Virus record (IMG/VR): IMGVR_UViG_3300042922_000152
Span: 1 to 64,000 of that record
Length of the DNA stretch: 64,000 nucleotides
Direction: 5' to 3' (one strand)
Source of the DNA: a virus
Below are positions 12,085-60,693 of the stretch, in pieces; position 1 is the stretch's first letter, and every line of letters starts with the position of its first letter. Under the pieces are notes generated by a model. The model saw nothing but the letters and a program-made list of their open reading frames with translations, searched no databases and was not told the origin of the DNA. The translations under genes and the position numbers were made by a program.

Positions 12085-14709
12085 ATGGCGGGCAAACAAT
12101 ACAGGCTGACAGCGGTCTTGTCCTTGCGTAATAAGCTTTCAGGTCAATTGTCCAAGGTTAAATCTGCTACCTCTAAGGTGGCGAAGACCGTGAGCAAAGA
12201 CATGAGCGCTATATCCCGCGCTGTATCGACAGGCGCGAAGCGAGTCAAGACTGTATCTGGTAGACTGTTTCAGCCTATCTCAGGCGCAGCGACTCAAGCG
12301 ACTATTGCAGTCAAAGGCCTTGTGTCAGCCGTGAAGAAGGTTCGCGGCATTTCTGCTCCAACAACTCGTCCGGCTACAGCAGCGCCTCCACAATCTAATG
12401 CAGTTTACTCAGGAGGACGCTGGCGTAATCCTAATACAGGACGCTTCGTAGCTGGTGCAAACGCTGCGACAAACGCCGCGATTCGCGCGACGACAGCAAC
12501 AGGAAAAACATCCACCTCCCTGAACAAGCTGACACAGAGCAACGCGCGCGCAGGTTCGAGCTTCATGTCTATGACAAAGGGTATCGTAGGCATGACTGCT
12601 GCCTTCGGCGTACTTACAGCAGCAGCGTCCCCCTTCCTGAAGGTGGTTCAAGGCATTAAAGATGCGTTCAAATTCGAAATGAACCAAGCGACGATAACAG
12701 CAATGTTCAAGGGCGACACGAAGCAAGCCGACGCATACATGAACATGCTCAGTAAACGAGCGCTTGACTCACCACTGTTTCAAGAACAAGACTATTTTCA
12801 GTATTCGAAATCGTTCGTCGGTATGTCTAAGGACATAAACCAACTGAGCGCCATGTGGGGAATCGCTGAAAGACTTGCTGCGGCTGACCCTGTACAAGGT
12901 CTTGAAGGTGCGGTATTCGCTATGCGCGAAATGTTCTCCGGTGACGCTGTTTCGATGGTTGAACGTTTTGAAATGCCGAGAGCAAAAATGAACGAAATCA
13001 AGAAACTCGACATCAATGGGCAGATTAACGCTCTTGACAAACAACTGTCAGAAATGGGTTTCGGTGCCGACTTCCTCGACAAGATTTCTGATACCGGAAC
13101 AGCTTACAAGAATCAAATTCAAGAGAAATTCCAAAAGGCGTTCAAGAACATCGGTACAGGCGCGCTTGAGGAAATGAAACCTCGTATGAAGGCCTTCAAC
13201 GAATCGCTTGATACAGGAGGCCTTGAGCAGTTTACGAAGATTGGCACGAAGGTCATGAAGACTTTCTTCAGCTACACGTTCAGAGGCTTTGACATGTTCG
13301 TGAACAAGGTAGCGAAGCCTTTCGTCAAGTGGTTCAAGGAAATGAGCGCTTGGACTTATCCTCTTGCGAAAGGAATTGGCGTTGCAATCGCAGCCTTTGC
13401 AGCTTTCAGCGCTGTGACGATGGTTATTCGCGCTGTAGGCGCTGCTATATCGTTCCTAACCTCTCCTATCGGTCTTGTCCTCGTAGCTATAGCGCTGCTG
13501 TATGCTGCGTGGGATGGAAACTGGTGGGGATTCCGTGATACGGTAATTAAGGTGTGGAACTACATCTTCCCGTATCTGACGAAGGCGTGGAACTGGATTG
13601 TCAACCTGTTCAAGACGAGTGGGCCTAAAATACAGTCAACAGTCATGTCTATGATGTCAAAGGTCAAGCAGATTTTCCTAACCTACTGGCCTATGGTAGT
13701 AAACATTGCCAAACAGGTTTGGGGAGTCCTTGTTAACATTTACAGGACGTTCGCGCCGATTATCGTGCAGGTTGTGCAGTATGCGTGGGGCTTGATTCAG
13801 CGGATCATTGCTTTTGTAATGCCCTTCATTGTCGGGCTAATTCAAAAATATGTACCGATGATTGTCAAAGCCTTTCAAACTGTCTACAACTATATTATGA
13901 TGATCATGCCGAAGGTGCTTGAGGTCATAACGCGCATTTGGAACACAATCTGGCCTATTGTCAAGTTTGCTGTTGACGTGATATGGGAAGTTGTTAAGGT
14001 GGCGTTTACGGCAATTTGGGGAATTATCGAATGGGTAATGAACCTCATTGTAAACGTCATTCGCGTTGCTTGGGATGTCGTCTCTGGCGTGTTCAACTTC
14101 TGGGTATCGCTGCTTTCAGGTGACGTTGTAGGAGCCTTTACAGGCCTGTGGGATACCGTTCAAAAGGTGTTCGGCAAGAACGGCATTACCAAAATTTTCA
14201 CAGACGCTATAGGCGGCGCTTGGGATGTTGGCAAGAACCTCGCAGGTGCGATTCGAGACGGATTCACAAACGTGTTTACGAGCTTCATTGATAATGTCAA
14301 GGGCTTGTGGGATGGGCTTACAGGCTGGTTTAAAAAGGGTGACAAGAAGATTTCTCCGCAGCTTGAAATTCCTTCTGAGGCAGAGCGCGCAGCATTTATT
14401 CCTGGAGGCTACAGCGCTGCAAGAGGCTCCTTTGGGCCTGCCCCGAAAACACCTGCCTCTATTCCTTACAAGTCGCATTCAGGTGGCCTTGATTATGTGC
14501 CTTACGATGGCTACAAGGCAAACCTGCATAAAGGCGAGCGCGTGTTAACCAAGGAAGAAAACAAAGAGCAGAGCAGCGCGCAGCGTCCTATCATCGTCAA
14601 CATTCCCAAGCTTGCTGATACTATTAATGCAAGTGACCCGAAGGACGTTGATAAGATGATGGGTATATTCGCTCGCAAACTGAATGAGTTAGGAGGCGCG
14701 CCCGCATGA
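12085..14709 (+). CDS. Tail tape measure protein
   Basis: The 874-aa protein is the longest in the window. It has a basic N-terminus rich in Lys/Ser/Ala (first 110 residues), helical and Gly/Ala-rich middle parts, many hydrophobic segments with repeated Trp-bearing helices (about 430-690), and a C-terminus with [20 protein letters not shown], common in tape measures of this group. By the usual 0.15 nm per residue, tail length would be about 130 nm. It overlaps the LysM gene by ATGA. Confidence 0.92.
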
Positions 14710-41078: not shown

Positions 41079-43460
41079 ATGGCTAAGAAGCAACAAAGTA
41101 TATTTGGTGCAATGCAGCGCGACGACAAGACCAAGGAACTCAACAAGGCTATACTCGAACGCGCGCAGCAATCGCAGAAGCAGGCACGAACAATGTCAGC
41201 GCGCGTTACTGTAGACCCCAAGGAAGGCAAGCGCGCTGCGCTCATTGCTAAGGTGCAGGCTGCTGTGGAAGTAGCGAAGCAGAAGCTTATACCTGATGAC
41301 ACCTATGAAATCATTAGAGACGAAGCGCGACTTGTAGAATACGTGGATACTTTGATAGGTATCGTCACTGTCAATCCTGATGAAATTATTGGCATTGACT
41401 TCGAGGCGACGAGCCTTGATCCGATAACAGGAACGCTCGTAGGCACAGCACTTTACATTCAGGGCACGAAGGAAGTCTATATACCACATACTCACACAGA
41501 CTACTTTGACAAGCTGTTGCCAAATCAGATTTCCTTTGAAGTCATGGCGCGTGAGCTTATGCGTCTTATCGCTGCAAATGCCAAGTTCGTCTATCATAAT
41601 GCTAAGTTTGATATGCGATATGCTAAGAACGCTATGGGCGTTCTTATACCTGTGCATTGGGATACTTCGCTTGGCTCAAACTTCCTGAATGAGTATGAGC
41701 CTCACGGCCTCAAGCCTTTGTGGGACAAATATGTAAGCAAGGACAGCGAAAAGAAATCCGAGCAGTTTTCTGACCTGTTTGACGGCATACCTTTTAACTA
41801 TGTTCCTATCGAACTTGGCGCAATCTATGCAGCGAAAGACCCGCGCAAGACTGTTGAACTATGTTACTTCCAAAAGCAGTACCTAACTGAGACTGCGGAG
41901 AAGTGCATAAAGGCTGACCTTGTTGACACAGCGCGTCTACATTGTAACTGGGAAACGCCACTAATTCCTGTTCTCAGAGACATGGAAGAACGAGGCGTTG
42001 GACTTGACAAAGACATGTCAAAAGAACTGTCCGTCAAGTATAATAGATTGAAGGTAGAGGCTGAAGCAAAATGTCAAGCGTACCTGAAGAAGCTTGATTA
42101 TCGTAAGCTGAACGCAGAGCAGCGCGGCAAGCTCGGCAATCCTATAAATTTGAACAGTCCCATTCAGCTTCAGATTGTACTATATGACGTTATGGAGCTA
42201 CCTTCTGTAGAAAGGAAGTCTCCAAGAGGTACGGGTGAGAAGGTTCTTGAAAAGCTCAAGGAGCGCCTTCAGAATGAGAAGAATACAAAGGATGGCGATA
42301 AGAAAAAGCATGTTGAATTTTTTGACTTGCTTCTTGAATATCGCGGCATAGCGAAACTCGTTTCCACATACATTGACAACCTGCCTGACCTTGTTAAGGA
42401 GAAGACAGGCAAGATTCACACCCAATACAATCAGTATGGCGCAAGAACAGGACGATTCTCTTCAGAAGCGCCCAACCTGCAAAATATACCGTCAAAGAAT
42501 AAAGAGATTCGAAAGATGTTCATTCCTTCGATTGGCTTTGTGTTCATCGGCGGCGACTTTTCACAGCAGGAGCCTCGCGCGCTTGCTCACCTGTGCTTTG
42601 TCCTCTTTCAGGACAGGAAAATGCTTGACGCATATCTTGCAGGCAAAGACTTGTATTCATGGATGGCTGCTGAAATTTACAAAGTTTCTTACGAGGAATG
42701 TAAAGAGTTCCGGCCTGATGGCAGCACCAATGCTGAAGGCAAGAAGCGCAGAAACTCAGTTAAGAGCATTTTGCTTGGCCTGATGTACGGGCGCTCGACT
42801 GCATCCGTAGCAGAGCAAATGGAAGTAACTGAAGCTGAAGCGCAAAAAATTGTTGACATGCTGTTTAACGAGTTTCCCGGCATTCTTCGTGTCATTCATT
42901 ACTATGAAGACATGGTTCGTGAGAAGGGTTATGTTAAGACCATATACGGGCGCAAGTGTCGTATACCTGATTTCAATCTTCCTGATTATCAATGCGTGTA
43001 TGACAGCGACAGGAAGACGCCAATACAAGAGCGTGAAATAAATGATTACTATGTACGCAAGATGCGCCTTGCTACGGGTTACAAGTCAAGGCGCGCAGTC
43101 ATCGAAGAGGCTAATTCGAAAGGCATATGGATTGAGGACAACACACTTCTAATCTCAGAAGCGCAACGTCAAATACTGAACAGCGTCATTCAGGGCACAG
43201 GCGCAGACATCACGAAAATTGCTATGGTGCTTGTAGGTACGGACGAGCAATTGAAGGAATGGGGTTTCCATTTGTTGCTAACTGTGCATGACGAACTTAT
43301 TGGCGAAGCTCCTGAAGCGACTGCTCGTAAGTGCGCCGAGCGTATGCGTGAACTGATGCTGAAGGCTACTGAAGGCGTTCTTACAGTACCTATGTCTGTT
43401 GACTGTGAAATTACAAGGCGCTGGTTCGGTGAGGATATCACAAATGAATTAGCTGCATAA
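41079..43460 (+). CDS. DNA polymerase, family A, with 3'-5' exonuclease
   Basis: The 793-aa enzyme has exonuclease motifs GIDFEAT (Asp107, Glu109), VYHNAKFDMRY and YAAKD, so proofreading is probably active. Polymerase motif A is GGDFSQQEPR (about 491), motif B RRNSVKSILLGLMYG (about 557) and motif C VHDELIGE (about 737). The N-terminus MAKKQQSIFGAM has a QxxIF peptide like those that bind bacterial beta clamps, and the phage encodes such a clamp at 43851. Its own nested promoter lies directly upstream. Confidence 0.95.
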   Translation: MAKKQQSIFGAMQRDDKTKELNKAILERAQQSQKQARTMSARVTVDPKEGKRAALIAKVQAAVEVAKQKLIPDDTYEIIRDEARLVEYVDTLIGIVTVNPDEIIGIDFEATSLDPITGTLVGTALYIQGTKEVYIPHTHTDYFDKLLPNQISFEVMARELMRLIAANAKFVYHNAKFDMRYAKNAMGVLIPVHWDTSLGSNFLNEYEPHGLKPLWDKYVSKDSEKKSEQFSDLFDGIPFNYVPIELGAIYAAKDPRKTVELCYFQKQYLTETAEKCIKADLVDTARLHCNWETPLIPVLRDMEERGVGLDKDMSKELSVKYNRLKVEAEAKCQAYLKKLDYRKLNAEQRGKLGNPINLNSPIQLQIVLYDVMELPSVERKSPRGTGEKVLEKLKERLQNEKNTKDGDKKKHVEFFDLLLEYRGIAKLVSTYIDNLPDLVKEKTGKIHTQYNQYGARTGRFSSEAPNLQNIPSKNKEIRKMFIPSIGFVFIGGDFSQQEPRALAHLCFVLFQDRKMLDAYLAGKDLYSWMAAEIYKVSYEECKEFRPDGSTNAEGKKRRNSVKSILLGLMYGRSTASVAEQMEVTEAEAQKIVDMLFNEFPGILRVIHYYEDMVREKGYVKTIYGRKCRIPDFNLPDYQCVYDSDRKTPIQEREINDYYVRKMRLATGYKSRRAVIEEANSKGIWIEDNTLLISEAQRQILNSVIQGTGADITKIAMVLVGTDEQLKEWGFHLLLTVHDELIGEAPEATARKCAERMRELMLKATEGVLTVPMSVDCEITRRWFGEDITNELAA

Positions 43461-43466
43461 TTTGGC

Positions 43467-43496
43467 TTGCCTCTGGACACGTTATATAGTATACTA
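43467..43496 (+). promoter_or_regulatory. Sigma-A-like promoter with TAGTATACTA palindrome
   Basis: TTGCCT (43467-43472), 17 bases, TATACT (43490-43495), with TAGTATACTA at 43487-43496. It serves the 79-aa gene that follows. Confidence 0.8.
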
Positions 43497-43523
43497 AAAG
43501 AAAAACGTTTCGGAGGTTTGAAC

Positions 43524-43763
43524 ATGATCACTACGAAAAAGCAAAAGGTCATTGACGCGCTGAAGGCTGGTAACGCTCTTGAGGCAACAAAGTTGGCGAA
43601 GGCCTTCAAGATTGAGCTTACAAAGGAGCAGCAAGCTATTGTGGCGCGCGCCTTCGAAATGTCTCACTCGCCCGCGTTCTACGAACAACTTGGCTTTAAT
43701 GCTGCTGATCAACTTCAGAAAGCCGAAACAATCCTGCGCGAGGTATACGCAGAACATTTGTAA
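43524..43763 (+). CDS. Hypothetical helical protein (79 aa)
   Basis: CGGAGG precedes ATG 43524. The protein is all helical (KKQKVIDALKAGNALEATKL, then AAD-x-LQKAETILREVY) and has its own TTGC-type promoter and a terminator, so it is a one-gene early unit. No family was recognised. Small single-unit early proteins often target host factors, but nothing in the sequence shows this. Confidence 0.65.
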   Translation: MITTKKQKVIDALKAGNALEATKLAKAFKIELTKEQQAIVARAFEMSHSPAFYEQLGFNAADQLQKAETILREVYAEHL

Positions 43764-43778
43764 TAATTTCACACATAA

Positions 43779-43819
43779 AAGACTCCACTTAAAAAGTGGG
43801 GTCTTTTTGTTATATAACG
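43779..43819 (+). promoter_or_regulatory. Nested terminator-promoter, copy 5
   Basis: AAGACTCCACTT pairs with AAGTGGGGTCTT. CTTAAAA (43788-43794), 16 bases, TATATAACG (43811-43819). It starts the clamp operon. Confidence 0.88.
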
Positions 43820-43850
43820 ATTGAAAAACTAAAAGAGGAGTGACTGGACA

Positions 43851-44942
43851 ATGAAGTTCAAAATCAGCACAGCAAACCTTAATCGCATCTTGGCAATCGT
43901 CATCAAAGGGGCAGGCAACAAGCACACGCTGCCTATTACGAAATACTTCGCTCTGAGCCTGTCGAGTAACACATTGATTGTCACAGCTACGAACGGCGTT
44001 AACTTTATCTCGTACATTGAACCTGATGTACATGGTGAGGATGGTTACGCTGTTGTCGCTGCTGATCAACTGGTGCAGCTTGTAAAGCGCACTACGAAGC
44101 CGGAAATTGCCTTTGCTTCTGTGAAAGGTCATCTTGAAGTCAAAGGCAATGGCAAGTATTCGCTGCCTCTGTACACCTTCAGTGAAGGTGAGAGCTATCC
44201 GTCCTATGAGTTTGACGAAGATGCTGCACCGTTCGAAGTGAACGCGCAGATTCTCAAGAAGGCGCTGAAGGTCAACGAGTCGGCAATTGCAACAAACCTG
44301 ATCATTCCTTATCTCGCAGGCTATAACATTGGTGGACAACTGATCACTACCGATGGCCTCAAGATGTGCGTTAACGAGAGCGTGTTTGTTGATCCGCCTA
44401 TGCTCGTCTCTCAGCAGCTTGCAGACCTGTTGCAAATGCTTACCGCTGAAAAAGTCACTGTGCAAAAGGATGAAAACAAGCTGCTCTTTACTACTGACAA
44501 TATCGTTATCTTTGGCGCAGAGCTTGATGGCCTGAAAGATTATCCCGACATTACAGGTGTACTCGGCTTCGAGTACGACAATGTAGTGACTGTATCCAAA
44601 GTTGAGTTCACGAATGCACTTGACCGCCTGAAGTTGTTCACAGACCCTAACGACAATAACAGCATTATCATGACATTCGCTAAGAAAGGCCTGCTCATTG
44701 AAGACAGCAAAAAGAGCAGTCAAGAAGTGGTAGCGATTCAAGAGGGACCGGAGTATGCAGAGTTCTCCGTGACTGTCAACATTGAACTCTTGACTGACCT
44801 TATTGACGTGCTTGTTCATCCTGTCGTCAAGATTGAGTTTGGCGAAAACCTGCCTCTCAAGATTACTGAGAACGATGTTACATTGACGCTCGGCGTTATC
44901 GGTGACGACGAGGAAGAAGAGGACGCTGGCGAGGAGGAGTAA
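43851..44942 (+). CDS. dnaN: DNA polymerase sliding clamp (beta clamp, DnaN-like)
   Basis: The 363-aa length and pattern fit the three-domain bacterial beta clamp: NRILAIVIKGAGNKHTLPIT with TKYFALSLSSNTLIVTATNG at the start, and later strands (VNIELLTDLIDVLVHPVVKIEFG). The C-terminus is extended by an acidic EEEEDAGEEE tail, unlike bacterial clamps. A ring of two subunits would hold the phage polymerase on DNA. GAGGAGTG precedes the ATG. Cas4-like, ThyX, resolvase, dUTPase and RecA genes follow in the same operon. Confidence 0.85.
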   Translation: MKFKISTANLNRILAIVIKGAGNKHTLPITKYFALSLSSNTLIVTATNGVNFISYIEPDVHGEDGYAVVAADQLVQLVKRTTKPEIAFASVKGHLEVKGNGKYSLPLYTFSEGESYPSYEFDEDAAPFEVNAQILKKALKVNESAIATNLIIPYLAGYNIGGQLITTDGLKMCVNESVFVDPPMLVSQQLADLLQMLTAEKVTVQKDENKLLFTTDNIVIFGAELDGLKDYPDITGVLGFEYDNVVTVSKVEFTNALDRLKLFTDPNDNNSIIMTFAKKGLLIEDSKKSSQEVVAIQEGPEYAEFSVTVNIELLTDLIDVLVHPVVKIEFGENLPLKITENDVTLTLGVIGDDEEEEDAGEEE

Positions 44943-53167: not shown

Positions 53168-53375
53168 AAGCAGGGAACTTCAAAAGTTCTGCAAAGGCCG
53201 TAAGGTGACAGGCATTTGGCTTGACGGTGATCAACTCATATGGGAGCTTGATAACGTGTTGATTGTTACCGCACAGGCAGGACACAGCCGCACACTTTTT
53301 ACTGATGTGAAGAAGAAAACAGTATCGTATGTTGAACCCACTGAGGAGGACTATTCCTATGAATCTCGCCAATAA
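53157..53375 (+). CDS. Hypothetical protein (72 aa)
   Basis: AAGGAGCTTG precedes ATG 53157, inside the end of the nuclease gene. The protein has a helix, then strands (KVTGIWLDGDQLIWELDNVL) and an acidic Tyr-rich end. It lies just before the clamp loader gene and overlaps its start. Function unknown. Confidence 0.6.
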   Translation: MEAESRELQKFCKGRKVTGIWLDGDQLIWELDNVLIVTAQAGHSRTLFTDVKKKTVSYVEPTEEDYSYESRQ

Positions 53376-54345
53376 GTACAGACCGCAAAGCTTCATCGAC
53401 GTTGTAGGTCAGGAGCATGTGAAGAAGATTCTTGCGAATCAACTTCGCACCAAGGACATCAAGAACGCCTACCTTTTCACAGGGGGCGCAGGAACAGGCA
53501 AGACAACCAATGCTCGTATCTTCGCTAACTGCATTGACGCTGAAGTTATCGAAATTGATGGCGCAAGTAACAACGGCGTGGACAACGTTCGTGAATTGAT
53601 TGAATCCTCTCGGTATCGTCCTATTAGCGCCGCGTACAAAGCTTACATCATTGACGAGGTTCACATGTTGTCTACAGGCGCGTTCAATGCGCTGCTGAAG
53701 ACGCTGGAAGAGCCGCCTGCTCACGCTGTATTCATTCTCGCTACGACTGACCCGCAAAAGATTCCGGCAACGATTATGAGTCGAGTTCAGCGCTTCGACT
53801 TTCACCGCCTCACTGTCGAGCAGATTGTTGCGAACCTGAGCAACATTGCGGAAGCAGAAGACCGCAGCGTTGCTGAGGATGCGCTCGAATACATTGCAAA
53901 GCTCGCTCAGGGTGGAATGCGTGACGCTATCACGATTCTCGACACAAGCCTTGGTTATGTTTCTGAAGGCGAGACGCTGACCCTTGATACAGTGATTGAC
54001 GTTGTAGGAACTACGCCACATAGCTTGTACATTGACCTGTGCAGGTATAAGGAAGCAGGCAACACGTTGGAAATTCTCAACCTGCTTGAGCAGGTTTACG
54101 CTTCAGGCGCCGACTTCAAGCGCTTCGTTGCAGGCCTGCTTGAGTTTGTAGTGGACGTTGAAAAGCTTGTGGTACTTGATGACATGCGCTATGTAGCTGC
54201 TCCTGCTATCTATGAGGTTGACATGAGGAGTCTTGCGGACATGAACCTCCTCAAGTGGTACAAGCCTCTGTCTGACCTGCTTGCTCAGATTAAGTACGAG
54301 CATTCACCTAAAACTTTGGTTACGGGGGCGATACTGTGTCTGTAG
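53359..54345 (+). CDS. dnaX: Clamp loader ATPase subunit (DnaX gamma/tau-like)
   Basis: GAGGAGGAC precedes ATG 53359. LANKYRPQSFIDVVGQEHV opens the AAA+ core; Walker A is GGAGTGKTT (42-50) and Walker B IIDEVHML (97-104), followed by NALLKTLEEPP and the sensor ATTDPQKIP with SRV. The zinc module usually between Walker A and the IEIDGASNNG motif is absent. At 328 aa it lacks the tau extension. With the delta-prime-like and delta-like proteins next door it can form a complete loader. Confidence 0.92.
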   Translation: MNLANKYRPQSFIDVVGQEHVKKILANQLRTKDIKNAYLFTGGAGTGKTTNARIFANCIDAEVIEIDGASNNGVDNVRELIESSRYRPISAAYKAYIIDEVHMLSTGAFNALLKTLEEPPAHAVFILATTDPQKIPATIMSRVQRFDFHRLTVEQIVANLSNIAEAEDRSVAEDALEYIAKLAQGGMRDAITILDTSLGYVSEGETLTLDTVIDVVGTTPHSLYIDLCRYKEAGNTLEILNLLEQVYASGADFKRFVAGLLEFVVDVEKLVVLDDMRYVAAPAIYEVDMRSLADMNLLKWYKPLSDLLAQIKYEHSPKTLVTGAILCL

Positions 54346-55163
54346 AAAAGAACTTAGTATTCCTCGGACAGTCTCCTGTTTATACTCACCTTATGCACCT
54401 GATTTTTACAAAGCGCCTGCCTAACTTCATCATCATTGCGGCGCCTCCGCGCTGGGGAAAAAAGACCTTCGCTCGCGCTATCGCTATGGCAGCAAACATG
54501 CCTCTTCTGGAGGCGACAGAGTTCAAAGTTGACGAAATGCGGGACTTCATCATTGACGCGCAGACTCTCAGGCAGCGCAAGGCCTACCTGATACCCGACA
54601 TTGAAACAATGTCACTCGGCGCACAAAACGCGCTGCTGAAGTTCATGGAGGAGCCTCCGAAAAATGCGTACATCTTCGCAACAGTTTCGGCGCTTCATAC
54701 TGTGCTGCCAACGATTCGCTCACGCGCTAAGACTTTCATCTTCAGGCCTTATGATGTTGAGGAGCTTCGACACTTCACAGACGACGAGGAACTTCTGAGC
54801 GCCTGCATGTCACCCGGACAGGTCAAGCGATTCCTCGACATGGGGGAAGCGGGCTACAAGGCAATGCTGAAGCTCACGAAGAAGCTCGTGGATGACATTG
54901 CGAAGGCAAGCGCTGCGAACCTGTTCAAGATTCCCGCGCAAGTTACCGCAGATGACTTGGACCTGTTCTTCATGCTCATTGAGCATTACCTGTTCATTAA
55001 CTTGTGTGTTCCTTTTGGCAATAATAGCGTCGAGCTTTCACGTTTGCACCGTATGTCTATCGTTACAGCAGAGTTCAAACATCAAAGTCATAACAAGGGA
55101 ATCAGCAAAGCAAACATGCTGGACATGTACCTTGTCAGGCTGCGCGAGGAGGCTTTACAGTGA
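54336..55163 (+). CDS. Clamp loader delta-prime-like subunit
   Basis: A GTG start follows GGGGGCGATACT. The 275-aa AAA+ fold has a changed P-loop, APPRWGKKTFAR (near 32-43), and motifs AQNALLKFMEEPPKNAYIFA and RSRAKTF that match HolB-type delta-prime proteins. Such subunits stiffen the loader and usually do not hydrolyse ATP. The ten-base overlap with the DnaX-like gene indicates coupled synthesis. Confidence 0.85.
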   Translation: MSVEKNLVFLGQSPVYTHLMHLIFTKRLPNFIIIAAPPRWGKKTFARAIAMAANMPLLEATEFKVDEMRDFIIDAQTLRQRKAYLIPDIETMSLGAQNALLKFMEEPPKNAYIFATVSALHTVLPTIRSRAKTFIFRPYDVEELRHFTDDEELLSACMSPGQVKRFLDMGEAGYKAMLKLTKKLVDDIAKASAANLFKIPAQVTADDLDLFFMLIEHYLFINLCVPFGNNSVELSRLHRMSIVTAEFKHQSHNKGISKANMLDMYLVRLREEALQ

Positions 55164-55306
55164 TTGTTCGTATCAATGGTGAACGCATTGAAAACGTAGA
55201 GCGCTTGGAAATCGTGAATAACGAAGTTCCCACATCTGTAGCGCTTGCGTGGGTGGCTGTAGGCCTCGTAGTGCTGATTGCGTGGATTGAGAGGTTCGCG
55301 TCATGA
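55160..55306 (+). CDS. Small membrane protein (48 aa)
   Basis: A GTG start overlaps the previous stop, with GAGGAGGC upstream. The N-terminal 24 residues are soluble (MIVRINGERIENVERLEI); a hydrophobic helix follows (VALAWVAVGLVVLIAWI). It sits between two clamp-loader genes, an odd place for a membrane protein; a role in tethering the replisome is only an idea. Confidence 0.6.
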   Translation: MIVRINGERIENVERLEIVNNEVPTSVALAWVAVGLVVLIAWIERFAS

Positions 55307-55325
55307 ACGAGAGGAGAAAAAGCCG

Positions 55326-56261
55326 ATGAACTTCCAAACATTGAAGAAGGAACTTGATAACGGCGTCTACAGGAACCTGTATATCTTCTCAGGTGACGAG
55401 CGTGAAGTGATGCGCAAGTACATTAAGCGCATAGCTGGTGATACTCCTATAACACGTCCCGACAGCATCAAGAGCATAGCAAAGGCGCTGCAAACGCGCT
55501 CCTTGTTTCCTTCTCGTCGCGTGTATCTGCTGGAAGATGATAAGGCAGTTCTTGACATGAATTTGTCAACTTTGCAGCACAAGGCCAACATGTGCAAGGA
55601 TACCGTCATCATTATCACCTTCAGGAGTATTGACAATCGCCTCAAGTTTTTCAAGGACGTGAAAGAGGAGCTTTGTAGCTTCGACAAGTACACGGAGCAG
55701 CAGCTTGTAGGCTTTATAGTCAAGCAGGTTCAAATGCCTGAAGAGGTAGCTTTGCAGCTTGCAAAACGTTGTGGAAATGACGTTGCGCGCATTGAGTCTG
55801 AATGTAACAAGCTGAAGCACTTCACGAGTGATGTACCACCATTCATTGACGATGCGATTACCCTTGAAATGCTGCGCGATATTGTTGCACCTACGCTGGA
55901 AGATAGGATATTCGAAATGATTGACGCGGTGGCTACAAAGAAACTCTCAAAAGCCTTCAGCCTCTACAAGGAACTGCTGGACATGAAAGAAAGCCCCATC
56001 AAAATTGTGTCGCTTCTGTACACGAAGTTTCGTCAAATTTTCCTGCTGCAATATTACAGCGGCTTGAAAGGCGAAATCGGTCAGAACACAGGCATGAATC
56101 CTTGGCAAATTAAAATGACTCAACCGCTCGTAGGTCACTTTCAGACTGAGCGCCTGCTGAAGATCATGAAGCAGATTCAAAGCGCAGAGGTCAAAATGAA
56201 AACAGGTCAGATGGACATGTCAACTGGTATGGATGTCCTGATGATAAACATTCTCGCATAG
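55326..56261 (+). CDS. holA: Clamp loader delta-like subunit (HolA)
   Basis: GAGAGGAG precedes ATG 55326, giving 311 aa. NLYIFSGDEREVMRKYIKRI, TRSLFPSRRVYLLEDDKAV and KRCGNDVARIESECNKL follow the delta-subunit pattern, with the later PIKIVSLLYTKFRQIFLLQY helix. Delta opens the clamp ring. Finding gamma-, delta- and delta-prime-like genes together with a clamp gene means the phage brings its own clamp machinery. Confidence 0.85.
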   Translation: MNFQTLKKELDNGVYRNLYIFSGDEREVMRKYIKRIAGDTPITRPDSIKSIAKALQTRSLFPSRRVYLLEDDKAVLDMNLSTLQHKANMCKDTVIIITFRSIDNRLKFFKDVKEELCSFDKYTEQQLVGFIVKQVQMPEEVALQLAKRCGNDVARIESECNKLKHFTSDVPPFIDDAITLEMLRDIVAPTLEDRIFEMIDAVATKKLSKAFSLYKELLDMKESPIKIVSLLYTKFRQIFLLQYYSGLKGEIGQNTGMNPWQIKMTQPLVGHFQTERLLKIMKQIQSAEVKMKTGQMDMSTGMDVLMINILA

Positions 56262-57532: not shown

Positions 57533-57573
57533 AAGGAGCCACTTAAAAATGGCTCCTTTTTTGCTATATAAAG
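57533..57573 (+). promoter_or_regulatory. Nested terminator-promoter, copy 9
   Basis: AAGGAGCCA (57533-57541) pairs with TGGCTCCTT (57550-57558). CTTAAAA (57542-57548), 16 bases, TATATAAAG (57565-57573). It drives the putative DNA modification operon. Confidence 0.87.
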
Positions 57574-57591
57574 AGTAAAGGAGGAATGAAC

Positions 57592-58314
57592 ATGACAATT
57601 TACAAAGCTAATAACTGGGAGTTTAACGAGGACGTAGCGAAGGTTTTCAAAGATCATGTCCGGCAATCTGTGCCCATGTACGATGCGTTTCACGACATGA
57701 TTGCAGAATTATCACGCTGGTTCATCAGGAACGACTCTATAGTGTTTGACCTCGGTTGCGCAACGGGTGAAGTCATCAGGCGTTTGTGCCTGGAACATGC
57801 TGACAAGAATGTTACTTATGTTGGTATTGATAATTCGATTGCCATGATTCAAGAGTCCCATGAAATGGTAAACACCTATAAATTTCAGAATGTTTGTCTG
57901 CAACAAGACGACATAAGAAATCTTGAGGATTATGTACCCGGCGAAGGTACTCTGGATTTCATTACGTCCGTACTCACGCTTCAATTCGTTCATCCGCGTT
58001 ATCGTCCTGAGATTTTACGCGCTGTTCATGCTTCACTCGCTCCCGGCGGTGCGTTCATCCTTGTTGAGAAGACCGTAGGCGCGTTCGCGCAGCTTGATGA
58101 AATGTATGTCGAATGCTATCATGAAATGAAAATGCGCAAAGGTTTGACGGTGCAAGACGTTCACGACAAGCAAAAATCTCTGCGCAGCGTACTTATGCCT
58201 GCGTCTGTAGGTGAGAACATTCGCTGGTTGAAGGACGCTGGCTTTCGTACAATGGAGGCATTCTTCAAATGGCACAATTTTGTAGGCATTATTGCCATTA
58301 AGGACAATGTATGA
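57592..58314 (+). CDS. CmoA-like protein (carboxy-SAM synthase family)
   Basis: ATG 57592 is eight bases behind AAAGGAGG. The 240-aa sequence follows CmoA along its length: FNEDVAKVFKDHVRQSVPMY at the start, FDLGCATGEV (52-61), GIDNSIAMI (78-86), the hallmark LTLQFV (128-133), PGGAFILVEK (151-160) and the end FFKWHNFVGIIAIK. CmoA turns SAM and prephenate into carboxy-SAM, used by CmoB in tRNA. No CmoB is seen; an ATPase and a DNA methyltransferase follow. The CmoA Arg thought to hold the carboxylate seems replaced by Gln194 (recalled alignment). Confidence 0.8.
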   Translation: MTIYKANNWEFNEDVAKVFKDHVRQSVPMYDAFHDMIAELSRWFIRNDSIVFDLGCATGEVIRRLCLEHADKNVTYVGIDNSIAMIQESHEMVNTYKFQNVCLQQDDIRNLEDYVPGEGTLDFITSVLTLQFVHPRYRPEILRAVHASLAPGGAFILVEKTVGAFAQLDEMYVECYHEMKMRKGLTVQDVHDKQKSLRSVLMPASVGENIRWLKDAGFRTMEAFFKWHNFVGIIAIKDNV

Positions 58315-59165
58315 CAAAGGCGCAGGAGTTTCGAACACTGTTGCTGCAAAAAGTCGAAGCTATTACGAAGGAGCATAAAGACCTGGCTTTGTTGTTCAGC
58401 GGGGGAACAGATTCGAGCCTGATTCTGTTCTGTCTCCTCGAACTTGGTATAAAGCCTGTATGCTACACCTTTGGCGTCGAAGGCTACAGGTCAAGAGACG
58501 TTATAGTCTCTCAGCAGCTTGCACAGCACTTTGGCGTTAAGCAGCAGCTTATCATGCTGAAGCCTGATGTCCAAACGCTTGAGCGAGACGTGCGGCAGAT
58601 CATACGCTATGCAAAGACCTCACGCAAAACTGTTGTGCAATGCCTTCACCCAATCAAGTATGTAATGCAGGTAGTGAAGGAGCCTGTATTGCTGAATGGT
58701 CTTAACGCTGACTCACTCTATGGAACAAGTCGGAAAATCTGCATTGAAGGCAAGGACGACAAGGAAGCCTTTGACAGGCTGCGGTACGCTGAAATGTATG
58801 ACCCGGAACTGTCCGACTTTTATATCAAGCGATACGTGGAGAGTCATGGTATAGTGTCGATTGACCCGTATCGTGACAAGGAAATAGAGGACTTCTTTCT
58901 CCCATTCACATGGCGAGAAGTGAATGAGCCTAAAGAGAAGCAGATTGCTGTAGACGCCTTTCAGGATTACTTCGGCGCGTTCGACTTTTACAGGCGCTCC
59001 GCGTCCTACCAGATTGAAAGCAAGCTGCGTGAATATCATGACTTGCTGCTTGCACAGCCTCACTTGAACCTCAAAGGCTGGAAGATTGTTAAGCCCATTT
59101 ATGACCTGATTTACTCGCAAGAAGTTCTTCAGGCAGGCAAACCCAAGCAGCGGCGATTATTTTAG
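58311..59165 (+). CDS. Asparagine-synthetase-like ATPase (PP-loop, no glutaminase domain)
   Basis: The PP-loop is FSGGTDSS (29-36). LLNGLNADSLYGTSRK (127-142) and the later DPYRDKEIEDFFLPFTWREV match the C-terminal synthetase domain of AsnB, which adenylates a carboxyl group and joins it to ammonia. The N-terminal glutaminase is absent, so ammonia or an amine is used. ATGA overlap with the CmoA-like gene ties the two. It may amidate a carboxyl group made by the pathway. The end QRRLF resembles clamp-binding peptides. Confidence 0.78.
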   Translation: MTKAQEFRTLLLQKVEAITKEHKDLALLFSGGTDSSLILFCLLELGIKPVCYTFGVEGYRSRDVIVSQQLAQHFGVKQQLIMLKPDVQTLERDVRQIIRYAKTSRKTVVQCLHPIKYVMQVVKEPVLLNGLNADSLYGTSRKICIEGKDDKEAFDRLRYAEMYDPELSDFYIKRYVESHGIVSIDPYRDKEIEDFFLPFTWREVNEPKEKQIAVDAFQDYFGAFDFYRRSASYQIESKLREYHDLLLAQPHLNLKGWKIVKPIYDLIYSQEVLQAGKPKQRRLF

Positions 59166-59182
59166 AAAGGAGGCTTGCAGCT

Positions 59183-59617
59183 ATGGGAGATATGGCGGAT
59201 TACTATCTTGATCTGGCGATGAACGCTTACGGTCTTGACGTAAACGACGAATGGCAAGGACGCTCATACAGCAGAAAGCATAAGACAAGGACGCACTACA
59301 CGCAGTATCGAAAGCCTGAAAAGAGTAATAAGCCCACGGTACAATTTCTCAAATTGCGGGATAATCCTAAGCTCTGGATAAACGCAGAAGGTGACATTAT
59401 TCACATTTACGACATGGACAGCAAACACCTGTTCAACTGCGTGAGACTTATTGAACGGCGTGAGCAAGAGCAGAAAGGAAATCCTCCTCCTGTATATGCG
59501 GAAATGATTAAGGAGCTGGTGAAGCGCGGCGTCATCACAGAACGCTATCAGCAGCAATCCTACATGAGAAAAAGCTTGAATGTGGAGGTAAACCTAAATG
59601 CGATTTACAATGACTGA
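59183..59617 (+). CDS. Hypothetical protein of the modification operon (144 aa)
   Basis: AAAGGAGGC precedes the ATG. The N-terminal half is basic and Tyr/Arg/His rich (GRSYSRKHKTRTHYTQYRKP), the middle has strands (FLKLRDNPKLWINAEGDIIH), and a helix with VYAEMIKELVKRGVITERY ends it. No family was recognised. It lies between the ATPase and methyltransferase genes, overlapping the latter by 20 bases, so it probably shares their task, perhaps DNA contact or substrate hand-over. Confidence 0.65.
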   Translation: MGDMADYYLDLAMNAYGLDVNDEWQGRSYSRKHKTRTHYTQYRKPEKSNKPTVQFLKLRDNPKLWINAEGDIIHIYDMDSKHLFNCVRLIERREQEQKGNPPPVYAEMIKELVKRGVITERYQQQSYMRKSLNVEVNLNAIYND

Positions 59618-60626
59618 TTTATTTTGTGGCTCTGGTATAGGTGCGATAGGTTTTCTCGCAGCAGGTTTTGATATTAACTATGCTCTTGATTTTAATGAAT
59701 ATGCGGTGAATACTTACAACCTGAATCACGCTGGTAAACACGCATTCAAGGCTGATGTGCGCGAGCTTGTATCAAGTGACCTGCCTGATAATGACATTAT
59801 CTCGGGAGGTTTTCCTTGTACCCCCTTTTCACTCGGAGGCAGCAACAGAGGCGAGAATGACGAGCGCCTTGGCAATCTTGGTTATCACTTCTTCAGGATG
59901 ATACAGGTCAAGAAGCCTATGGCCTTCATCGTTGAGAATGTCGAAGGCCTGACGAATGGGCGACACGTAAGATTCTTTCACTCGCTCATTGGTTGGCTTG
60001 AAAGTGCTGGCTACAATGTCGCTTTTCGTGTCGTCGATTGTTGGGACTATGGCGTACCACAGACACGAAATCGTGTGTTTATCGTAGGTATTCGCAAAGA
60101 CCTTGGCAAGCATTTTGTGTTCCCTGAAGTGCTGCCTATTCATGAACGTCCTACGATGCGTCAAGCGATATCTGACCTTCCTTTTCATCCTGAAGGCAGT
60201 AACATCCGCAATCATGTACGCTTTGTGCGTGGCTTCTCCTCGCGTTCTGCAATGATGAACAGGCAGCGCACATGGGACGAACCATCGTATACCATAGTCA
60301 GCAATCCTCGTCACCTTCCTTTGCATCCTGAGCCAGCAGGCTACGACTTCAGGCACAGAAGCATTGAGCAGATACATGAGGACGAGAAGAACCATATTAT
60401 TCGCAGGCTTACAGTTAGAGAATGTCTGCGCCTTCAGTCTGTACCTGATTGGTACTACTTCCCCGATATACCTGGGCGCAAGCTGAACGGCATCCTTGAG
60501 AAGCAGCATGAACGCTGTTCCGGTATTCCTCCCATCGTTGCTGAAAAGCTTGGTAAGCGCCTGATTGACACACTGACAGGCGACTTTCAAGAACCGCCTC
60601 GACAGAAAAAACTTTTCTCCATTTAA
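59598..60626 (+). CDS. DNA cytosine-C5 methyltransferase with altered motif X
   Basis: Motif I is DLFCGSGIGAIGF (7-19), motif IV GGFPCTPFS (70-78, Cys74 nucleophile), motif VI IVENV (111-115), motif VIII QTRNR (155-159) and motif IX RRLTVRECLRLQ (269-280). Motif X, usually QIGNAVPP, reads ERCSGIPP (305-312): the near-invariant Gly-Asn is Cys-Ser, with Arg306 beside it. That Asn lines the SAM pocket, so the cofactor may differ. The short C-terminal tail RQKKLFSI is clamp-motif-like. The target sequence cannot be read from the protein. Confidence 0.9.
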   Translation: MRFTMTDLFCGSGIGAIGFLAAGFDINYALDFNEYAVNTYNLNHAGKHAFKADVRELVSSDLPDNDIISGGFPCTPFSLGGSNRGENDERLGNLGYHFFRMIQVKKPMAFIVENVEGLTNGRHVRFFHSLIGWLESAGYNVAFRVVDCWDYGVPQTRNRVFIVGIRKDLGKHFVFPEVLPIHERPTMRQAISDLPFHPEGSNIRNHVRFVRGFSSRSAMMNRQRTWDEPSYTIVSNPRHLPLHPEPAGYDFRHRSIEQIHEDEKNHIIRRLTVRECLRLQSVPDWYYFPDIPGRKLNGILEKQHERCSGIPPIVAEKLGKRLIDTLTGDFQEPPRQKKLFSI

Positions 60627-60664
60627 GACTTGCTTAAAAAGCAAGTCTTTTTTCTTATATAACG
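60625..60664 (+). promoter_or_regulatory. Nested terminator-promoter, copy 10
   Basis: AAGACTTGC (60625-60633) pairs with GCAAGTCTT (60641-60649). CTTAAAA (60633-60639), 16 bases, TATATAACG (60656-60664). The stem begins at the methyltransferase stop codon. Confidence 0.9.
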
Positions 60665-60693
60665 AGTATCAGACAAGAAAGGAAGTAGAAAGT

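What the first reader, a model, noticed from the sequence alone, without database searches (positions are those of the whole stretch)
57592..60626. Candidate DNA hypermodification operon: CmoA-like protein, AsnB-like ATPase, unknown protein, C5-methyltransferase
Seen: four overlapping or tightly spaced genes behind one promoter, with no CmoB-like partner for the CmoA-like protein. Known: CmoA makes carboxy-SAM from SAM and prephenate; AsnB-type synthetase domains turn carboxyl groups into amides; phage Mu Mom DNA carries carbamoylmethyl on adenine, so such groups occur on DNA. Inferred: the methyltransferase places a carboxymethyl group on cytosine and the ATPase amidates it, or loads it with another amine, giving DNA that resists host nucleases. 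I know of no described phage pathway of this composition.
Basis: partly seen in the sequence, partly recalled or inferred. Interest (0 to 1): 0.9.

Follow-up and report, generated by a model that had tools for sequence, protein, structure and literature searches.

The report
Phage carboxymethylcytosine DNA-modification operon, new enzyme class
This phage carries a recently described three-enzyme pathway that hangs a carboxymethyl group on cytosine in its DNA and then couples an amine to it, but its DNA-modifying enzyme belongs to a separate lineage, not covered by the published definition, that appears to have evolved the same chemistry independently.

Summary
In detail: window 57592-60626 encodes a CmoA-like protein, a glutaminase-less AsnB-like ligase, a small unknown protein and a cytosine-C5 DNA methyltransferase, between two terminators and without CmoB. 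So the pathway is known. The window is not a plain copy. Its methyltransferase lacks both sequence marks used there to define CmoX (SPPC and Arg350); it has GFPC and ERCSGIP. I found ten more methyltransferases with this ERCSGIP-type motif. Seven have cmoA adjacent or nearby (phage contigs, Bacillota megaplasmids); the three without are from Vibrionaceae or their phages, whose hosts should make carboxy-SAM. They form one clade, and a single clade with classical CmoX is rejected (AU p=0.007). Both classes carry an Arg ('ER', R306 here) that none of 101 ordinary C5-methyltransferases has. Carboxy-SAM use therefore probably evolved at least twice. Two to three related operons also encode chorismate mutase, which makes prephenate, CmoA's co-substrate. 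The ligase belongs to a subclade with altered residues, so its amine is unknown. All biochemistry for the window is inferred.

The parts
57533..57558 (+). terminator-like hairpin and T-run closing the upstream unit
   Evidence: sequence
57565..57577 (+). TATATAAAGAGTA, possible phage promoter element at the operon start; one of only two exact TATATAAnGAGTA copies in the window
   Evidence: function inferred
57592..58314 (+). cmoA: carboxy-SAM synthase homologue (longest ORF from 57586; RBS favours 57592)
   Evidence: TIGR00740 162 bits, E 1.8e-47, higher than the proven SpCmoA at 115.6 bits; E. coli Arg199 position is Gln with Arg one helix turn later, as in SpCmoA (Glu/Arg)
58311..59165 (+). 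cmoY-like AMP-forming amide ligase, AsnB synthetase domain only, no glutaminase domain
   Evidence: PF00733; AlphaFold pLDDT 94; Foldseek asparagine synthetase E 5.7e-12 and beta-lactam synthetase; clade 99* with L013, L093, L095, L180
59183..59617 (+). 144-aa protein of a phage small-protein family (MGDMADYY start), probably a bystander
   Evidence: no Pfam hit; relatives L009-L012 without cmoA/X/Y in the fetched stretch
59598..60626 (+). class II CmoX candidate: C5-MTase with GFPC catalytic Cys74, HaeIII-like target-recognition region, and ERCSGIP (Arg306) in place of GN[AS]V of ordinary enzymes or GR[AS]V of classical CmoX
   Evidence: fold; Foldseek best M.HaeIII, rank 14 carboxymethyltransferase 8YF3
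60625..60649 (+). terminator-like hairpin and T-run closing the operon
60656..60668 (+). second exact TATATAAnGAGTA, upstream of the next unit

Best explanation
The operon is a CmoA/CmoX/CmoY-type DNA hypermodification system. CmoA converts SAM and prephenate to carboxy-SAM, which a Bacillales-like host would not provide (host inferred). The methyltransferase flips a cytosine, attacks C6 with Cys74 and transfers carboxymethyl to C5, giving 5-carboxymethylcytosine, probably in a GGCC-like site. The AsnB-like ligase adenylates the new carboxylate and couples a free amine (an amino acid or similar), giving an amide that blocks host nucleases. The methyltransferase is a second class of carboxymethyltransferase. 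In place of the Arg350 loop of classical CmoX it has ER[C/T]SGIP, with Arg306 proposed to hold the carboxylate of carboxy-SAM. Shown: gene content, homology, phylogeny, gene linkage and residue patterns. Inferred: every reaction in this phage, the role of Arg306, the target site and the amine.
For: 1) Same three enzymes in an operon as in S-B43, where all three steps and native 5-glycyl-carboxymethyl-dC were shown (PMC12783734; S-B43 locus). 2) The window CmoA scores above proven SpCmoA on TIGR00740 and shares its X199/R203 pattern. 3) Of ten other ERCSGIP-type MTases, all found through the methyltransferase and not through cmoA, seven have cmoA close by: phage contigs L180, L267, L265 and megaplasmids L269, L270, L271, L276. 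No convincing cmoA lies near about 80 loci with ordinary C5-MTases. Fisher p=1.4e-7, computed as 6/9 v 0/80 before pSC2 (L276) was added. 4) The three without cmoA are in Vibrionaceae (ICP1, Vibrio phage 1.161.O, a Photobacterium plasmid). 5) Arg in the 'ER' position: 68 of 71 CmoA/CmoY-linked R350-type enzymes carry exactly ER, all ERCSGIP-type enzymes have the Arg, 0 of 101 ordinary GN-type. 6) Chorismate mutase (prephenate source) lies in three related cmoA operons: L180, L267, L107.
Against: No biochemistry exists for any ERCSGIP enzyme. SpCmoX R350N lost activity with both cofactors (PMC12783734), so losing Arg350 is not trivially tolerated. Three class II members lack cmoA in their own record or neighbourhood; that their hosts make carboxy-SAM was not tested here. 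Cofactor placement could not be modelled: no coordinates were available. One weak CmoA-profile hit (E 1e-10, generic methyltransferase likely) lies in one ordinary-MTase locus (L224).
Confidence: 0.8

Rival explanations
1. The methyltransferase is an ordinary SAM-dependent C5-methyltransferase giving 5mC; CmoA and the ligase act on another substrate such as tRNA or a small molecule.
For: It fails both published CmoX marks, SPPC and Arg350. Its closest solved relative is M.HaeIII, a plain 5mC enzyme. ERCSGIP enzymes in ICP1 and Vibrio phage 1.161.O have no cmoA in the record.
Against: The Asn of the GN motif, present in all 101 ordinary enzymes in which the motif was found, is missing, and the Arg common to R350-type CmoX is present. 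Repeated linkage to cmoA. No CmoB in the record.
Confidence: 0.12
2. The end product is plain 5-carbamoylmethylcytosine (amidation with ammonia), as first suggested.
For: The ligase is AsnB-related, and some phage ligases associated with CmoX carry a glutaminase domain (PMC12783734; possibly the 546-aa ligase of L148, whose N-terminal part was not identified).
Against: The window ligase is 284 aa and covers only the synthetase domain. Its sister clade contains the glycine ligase SpCmoY.
Confidence: 0.12
3. 5-carboxymethylcytosine itself is the final product and the ligase is inactive or serves another pathway.
For: The ligase differs from SpCmoY at several otherwise conserved positions: Gln110 for Glu, Arg228, Arg240, His243. 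Megaplasmid class II systems have no ligase on the plasmid.
Against: PP-loop and other core residues are intact, those differences are conserved across a five-member clade, and all of these lie in cmoA operons.
Confidence: 0.08

Closest known systems
CmoA-CmoX-CmoY system of Synechococcus phage S-B43 (5-glycylcarboxymethylcytosine; Yang et al. 2025, PMC12783734; PDB 8YF3)
   Same: Same three enzyme types in one operon, no CmoB, ligase without glutaminase, CmoA with the shifted Arg pattern.
   Different: Methyltransferase of another lineage without SPPC and Arg350 and with a HaeIII-like target-recognition region; ligase in a sister subclade with different residues; an extra 144-aa gene.
M.HaeIII and other HaeIII-like C5-methyltransferases
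   Same: Fold (Foldseek E 7.7e-25) and similar target-recognition segment.
   Different: ERCSGIP replaces the GN[AS]V of ordinary enzymes; no restriction partner seen; linked to cmoA and cmoY.
CmoA-CmoX-II pairs on Bacillota megaplasmids (Aneurinibacillus, Brevibacillus, Jeotgalibacillus, Paenibacillus polymyxa pSC2)
   Same: Closest CmoA (40-42%) and among the closest methyltransferases, same motif.
   Different: No CmoY and no Terminase_6N hit on the three searched; pSC2 was not searched. The pSC2 methyltransferase gene is interrupted by a TnpB element.
E. coli CmoA/CmoB (cmo5U in tRNA)
   Same: CmoA homologue, 162 bits on TIGR00740.
   Different: No CmoB; target DNA, not tRNA.

Membership tests
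CmoA (Cx-SAM synthase, TIGR00740) | full-length similarity to the CmoA model | tested here: met
   162 bits over positions 6-239 of 239, under the curated cut-off of 193.3; proven SpCmoA scores 115.6
CmoA (Cx-SAM synthase, TIGR00740) | Arg199 of the E. coli enzyme (salt bridge to the Cx-SAM carboxylate, PMC3663124) | tested here: not met
   Gln in the window, with Arg four residues on; proven SpCmoA has Glu/Arg at the same places, so Arg199 itself does not define phage CmoA
CmoA (Cx-SAM synthase, TIGR00740) | forms Cx-SAM from SAM and prephenate | not testable with these tools
   needs an enzyme assay
CmoX as defined by Yang et al. 2025 | SPPC catalytic motif | tested here: not met
   GFPC
CmoX as defined by Yang et al. 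2025 | Arg350 at the position of Asn304 of M.HhaI | tested here: not met
   ERCSGIPP has no Arg there; it has Arg at the SpCmoX Arg347 position
CmoX as defined by Yang et al. 2025 | same clade as R350-type CmoX | tested here: not met
   AU test rejects classes I and II as one clade, p=0.007
CmoX as defined by Yang et al. 2025 | gene linkage to cmoA and ligase | tested here: met
DNA cytosine-C5 methyltransferase | PC motif, ENV motif and the C5-MTase fold | tested here: met
   PF00145 202 bits; Cys74 and Glu113-Asn114-Val115; Foldseek
CmoY (AMP-forming amide ligase) | AsnB synthetase domain with PP-loop, no glutaminase, in a cmoA/cmoX operon | tested here: met
CmoY (AMP-forming amide ligase) | glycine-binding pocket residues | tested here: inconclusive
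   sister clade to SpCmoY with different residues; the published pocket residues are in a supplement not readable here
cmo5U tRNA pathway | CmoB partner | tested here: not met
   no PF08003 hit in the record

The most novel reading that the evidence does not exclude
A second, independently evolved class of DNA cytosine carboxymethyltransferase (QYER[CT]SGIP, no Arg350) exists in phages and on Bacillota megaplasmids, outside the published CmoX definition; here it feeds a ligase subclade that attaches an amine other than glycine, giving a DNA base not yet described.
Probability: 0.5. Interest if true: 0.75.

Novelty: new variant of a known kind. Interest (0 to 1): 0.6.

Why it matters
5-carboxymethylcytosine was thought unnatural until 2025, and the published census counts only SPPC/Arg350 enzymes. 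A second class without those marks means the modification is more widespread than counted, extends to bacterial megaplasmids, and probably arose by convergent changes in one loop of ordinary C5-methyltransferases. A shared Arg (SpCmoX Arg347, window Arg306) gives a simple sequence test for carboxy-SAM use and a mutational prediction. Phage-encoded chorismate mutase bears on the prephenate-supply question that the 2025 paper leaves open.

Tried and rejected
Single-protein scans of IMG/VR with the window CmoA and the window methyltransferase found no relatives, because exact peptide patterns are too narrow; alignments were used instead. The 144-aa ORF was considered as a pathway enzyme and rejected: its relatives show no link to cmoA, cmoX or cmoY. 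Chorismate mutase was sought in the window record and is absent. GGCC counts (123 seen, 155 expected) do not decide the target site. The deviation of ERCSGIPP from GR[AS]VPP was first suspected to be an assembly error; identical motifs in ICP1, Vibrio phage 1.161.O and others exclude that. L266, a pattern hit, is a chance match. Structure models gave fold and confidence only, so no cofactor docking was possible.

Full report
OBSERVATION. The window lies in a 67,830-base IMG/VR virus record. It is a tailed phage with terminase, portal and baseplate J and its own replisome: primase, SSB, DnaB-type helicase, family A polymerase, beta clamp and three clamp-loader subunits. The best phage matches of its polymerase are from Gram-positive hosts (Streptococcus, Bacillus and Listeria phages), so a Bacillota host is plausible but not shown. 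The four genes are as described. They lie between hairpins at 57533-57558 and 60625-60649, each followed by TATATAAnGAGTA, which has only these two exact copies in the window. No CmoB is present.

THE PATHWAY IS KNOWN. Yang et al. (Nat Commun, 7 Dec 2025, PMC12783734) showed in Synechococcus phage S-B43 that phage CmoA makes carboxy-SAM, that CmoX (PDB 8YF3) makes 5-carboxymethylcytosine in GC motifs using Arg350 where M.HhaI has Asn304, and that CmoY ligates glycine to it; virion DNA held the glycyl product. The S-B43 operon is cmoA-cmoY-cmoX. In the set of loci fetched here, mostly from IMG/VR, 78 have all three genes (this count includes the window itself and a few duplicates).

CmoA. The window protein scores 162 bits on TIGR00740; proven SpCmoA scores 115.6. 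E. coli Arg199, which salt-bridges the carboxylate (PMC3663124), is Gln here with an Arg four residues later. SpCmoA has Glu and Arg at those places, so the window shares the arrangement of an enzyme known to work. Only E. coli among 14 control genomes passes the TIGR00740 cut-off, and B. subtilis does not appear at all; B. subtilis uses mo5U, not cmo5U (PMC6599085). A Bacillota host would thus need a phage-supplied CmoA.

METHYLTRANSFERASE. It is a clear C5-methyltransferase (model pLDDT 84; best PDB match M.HaeIII, 8YF3 at rank 14). But the defining marks of CmoX fail: GFPC instead of SPPC, and QHERCSGIPP where R350-type enzymes have ERxGR[AS]VPP. The nearest phage enzymes, in Vibrio phages ICP1 and 1.161.O, have the same QxERCSGIPP. 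Searching by the methyltransferase or its motif, not by cmoA, I found eight further members. Phage contig L180 reads cmoY-cmoA-chorismate mutase-methyltransferase; L267 has the same order; in L265 cmoA adjoins the methyltransferase. Bacillota megaplasmids of Aneurinibacillus (L269), Brevibacillus (L270), Jeotgalibacillus (L271, RTSGIP) and Paenibacillus polymyxa pSC2 (L276) each have cmoA upstream; pSC2 came up in both the methyltransferase search and a CmoA search. A Photobacterium plasmid (L272) has none nearby. Including ICP1 and 1.161.O, which lack cmoA in their records, seven of ten have cmoA close by. All three without are from Vibrionaceae, gammaproteobacteria that I expect to make carboxy-SAM for tRNA (a Vibrio vulnificus CmoB is cited in PMC12783734; not tested here). 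About 80 loci with ordinary C5-MTases show no convincing cmoA (one weak hit, L224). Fisher p=1.4e-7 for 6/9 against 0/80, computed before pSC2 was added; L180 and L267 are close relatives, as are ICP1 and 1.161.O, so the cases are not all independent.

INDEPENDENT ORIGIN. In a tree of 45 methyltransferases, R350-type CmoX (12 rows, 100*) and ERCSGIP-type (10 rows, 96*) are separate. The second sits with the ordinary enzyme of Bacillus phage phi3T (100*). Forcing both into one clade is rejected (p-AU 0.007; quick tree, groups defined by motif). A third set (L013, L093 with Arg in the loop; L129; two Staphylococcus phages with GG instead) lies elsewhere among ordinary enzymes. Both Cx-SAM-linked classes carry Arg at SpCmoX position 347: exactly ER in 68 of 71 R350-type enzymes, and the Arg in every ERCSGIP-type sequence, against 0 of 101 ordinary enzymes. 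I infer that this Arg helps bind carboxy-SAM and that in class II it replaces Arg350.

LIGASE. 284 aa, synthetase domain only, model pLDDT 94, fold of asparagine and beta-lactam synthetases. It forms a 99* clade with ligases of L013, L093, L095 and L180, next to the SpCmoY clade (support 89). Conserved differences in the clade are Gln110 for Glu, Arg228, Arg240 and His243. Without a glutaminase domain ammonia is unlikely; the amine could be glycine, another amino acid or something else.

PREPHENATE SUPPLY. Chorismate mutase (CM_2) lies inside the cmoA operons of L180 (39.5 bits), its relative L267 (43.5 bits) and, with an R350-type enzyme, L107 (66 bits). It is absent from the window record and from 98 of the 100 records searched in two batches. 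The 2025 paper does not mention chorismate mutase in its main text and names prephenate availability as an open question. No paper in the held library joins phage CmoA and chorismate mutase.

TARGET. The target-recognition segment (NRQRTWDEPSYTIVSNPRHLPLHP) resembles that of M.HaeIII, suggesting GGCC-like sites; genome statistics do not decide.

VERDICT. A member by function (inferred) of the 2025 pathway, with a methyltransferase that fails the published definition and represents a separate class: new variant of a known kind. Every biochemical step in this phage is inference from homology, linkage and residue patterns.

Noticed in passing
L180:5736-5993, L267 about 12410-12645, L107:540-791: Chorismate mutase genes inside phage cmoA operons, a likely prephenate booster for CmoA; found in two lineages.
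   Followed up: partly
L038, L050 and about 60 further loci: A large clade of viral contigs has CmoA (Arg199 type) beside ParB-domain proteins, one fused to a possible Rossmann methyltransferase-like region; 20 of 21 records checked have no C5-methyltransferase. The user of carboxy-SAM there is unknown.
   Followed up: partly
L269, L270, L271, L276: CmoA plus class II methyltransferase on Bacillota megaplasmids without CmoY on the three searched, suggesting carboxymethylcytosine outside phages; the pSC2 copy is interrupted by an IS200/IS605 TnpB element.
   Followed up: partly
L003, L006: Staphylococcus phages vB-SscS-F1 and SPbeta-like have cmoA next to a C5-methyltransferase with VVGGVINQ, neither GN, GR nor ERCSGIP.
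   Followed up: no
window 1-64000: CTAG is completely absent (0 seen, 93 expected) and GATC is depleted (77 seen, 181 expected).
   Followed up: no
window 57565-57577 and 60656-60668: TATATAAnGAGTA occurs exactly twice, each right after a terminator hairpin: a candidate phage promoter element.
   Followed up: no
window 41079-44942 and 53329-56261: The phage encodes a family A polymerase together with a beta clamp and three clamp-loader genes.
   Followed up: no
L007:5947-6738: CmoA homologue in a non-phage-like gut cluster with ABC transporters and membrane proteins, possibly natural-product synthesis with carboxy-SAM.
   Followed up: no
L265:3431-4357: A second C5-methyltransferase-like gene directly upstream of CmoA and the class II enzyme.
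   Followed up: no
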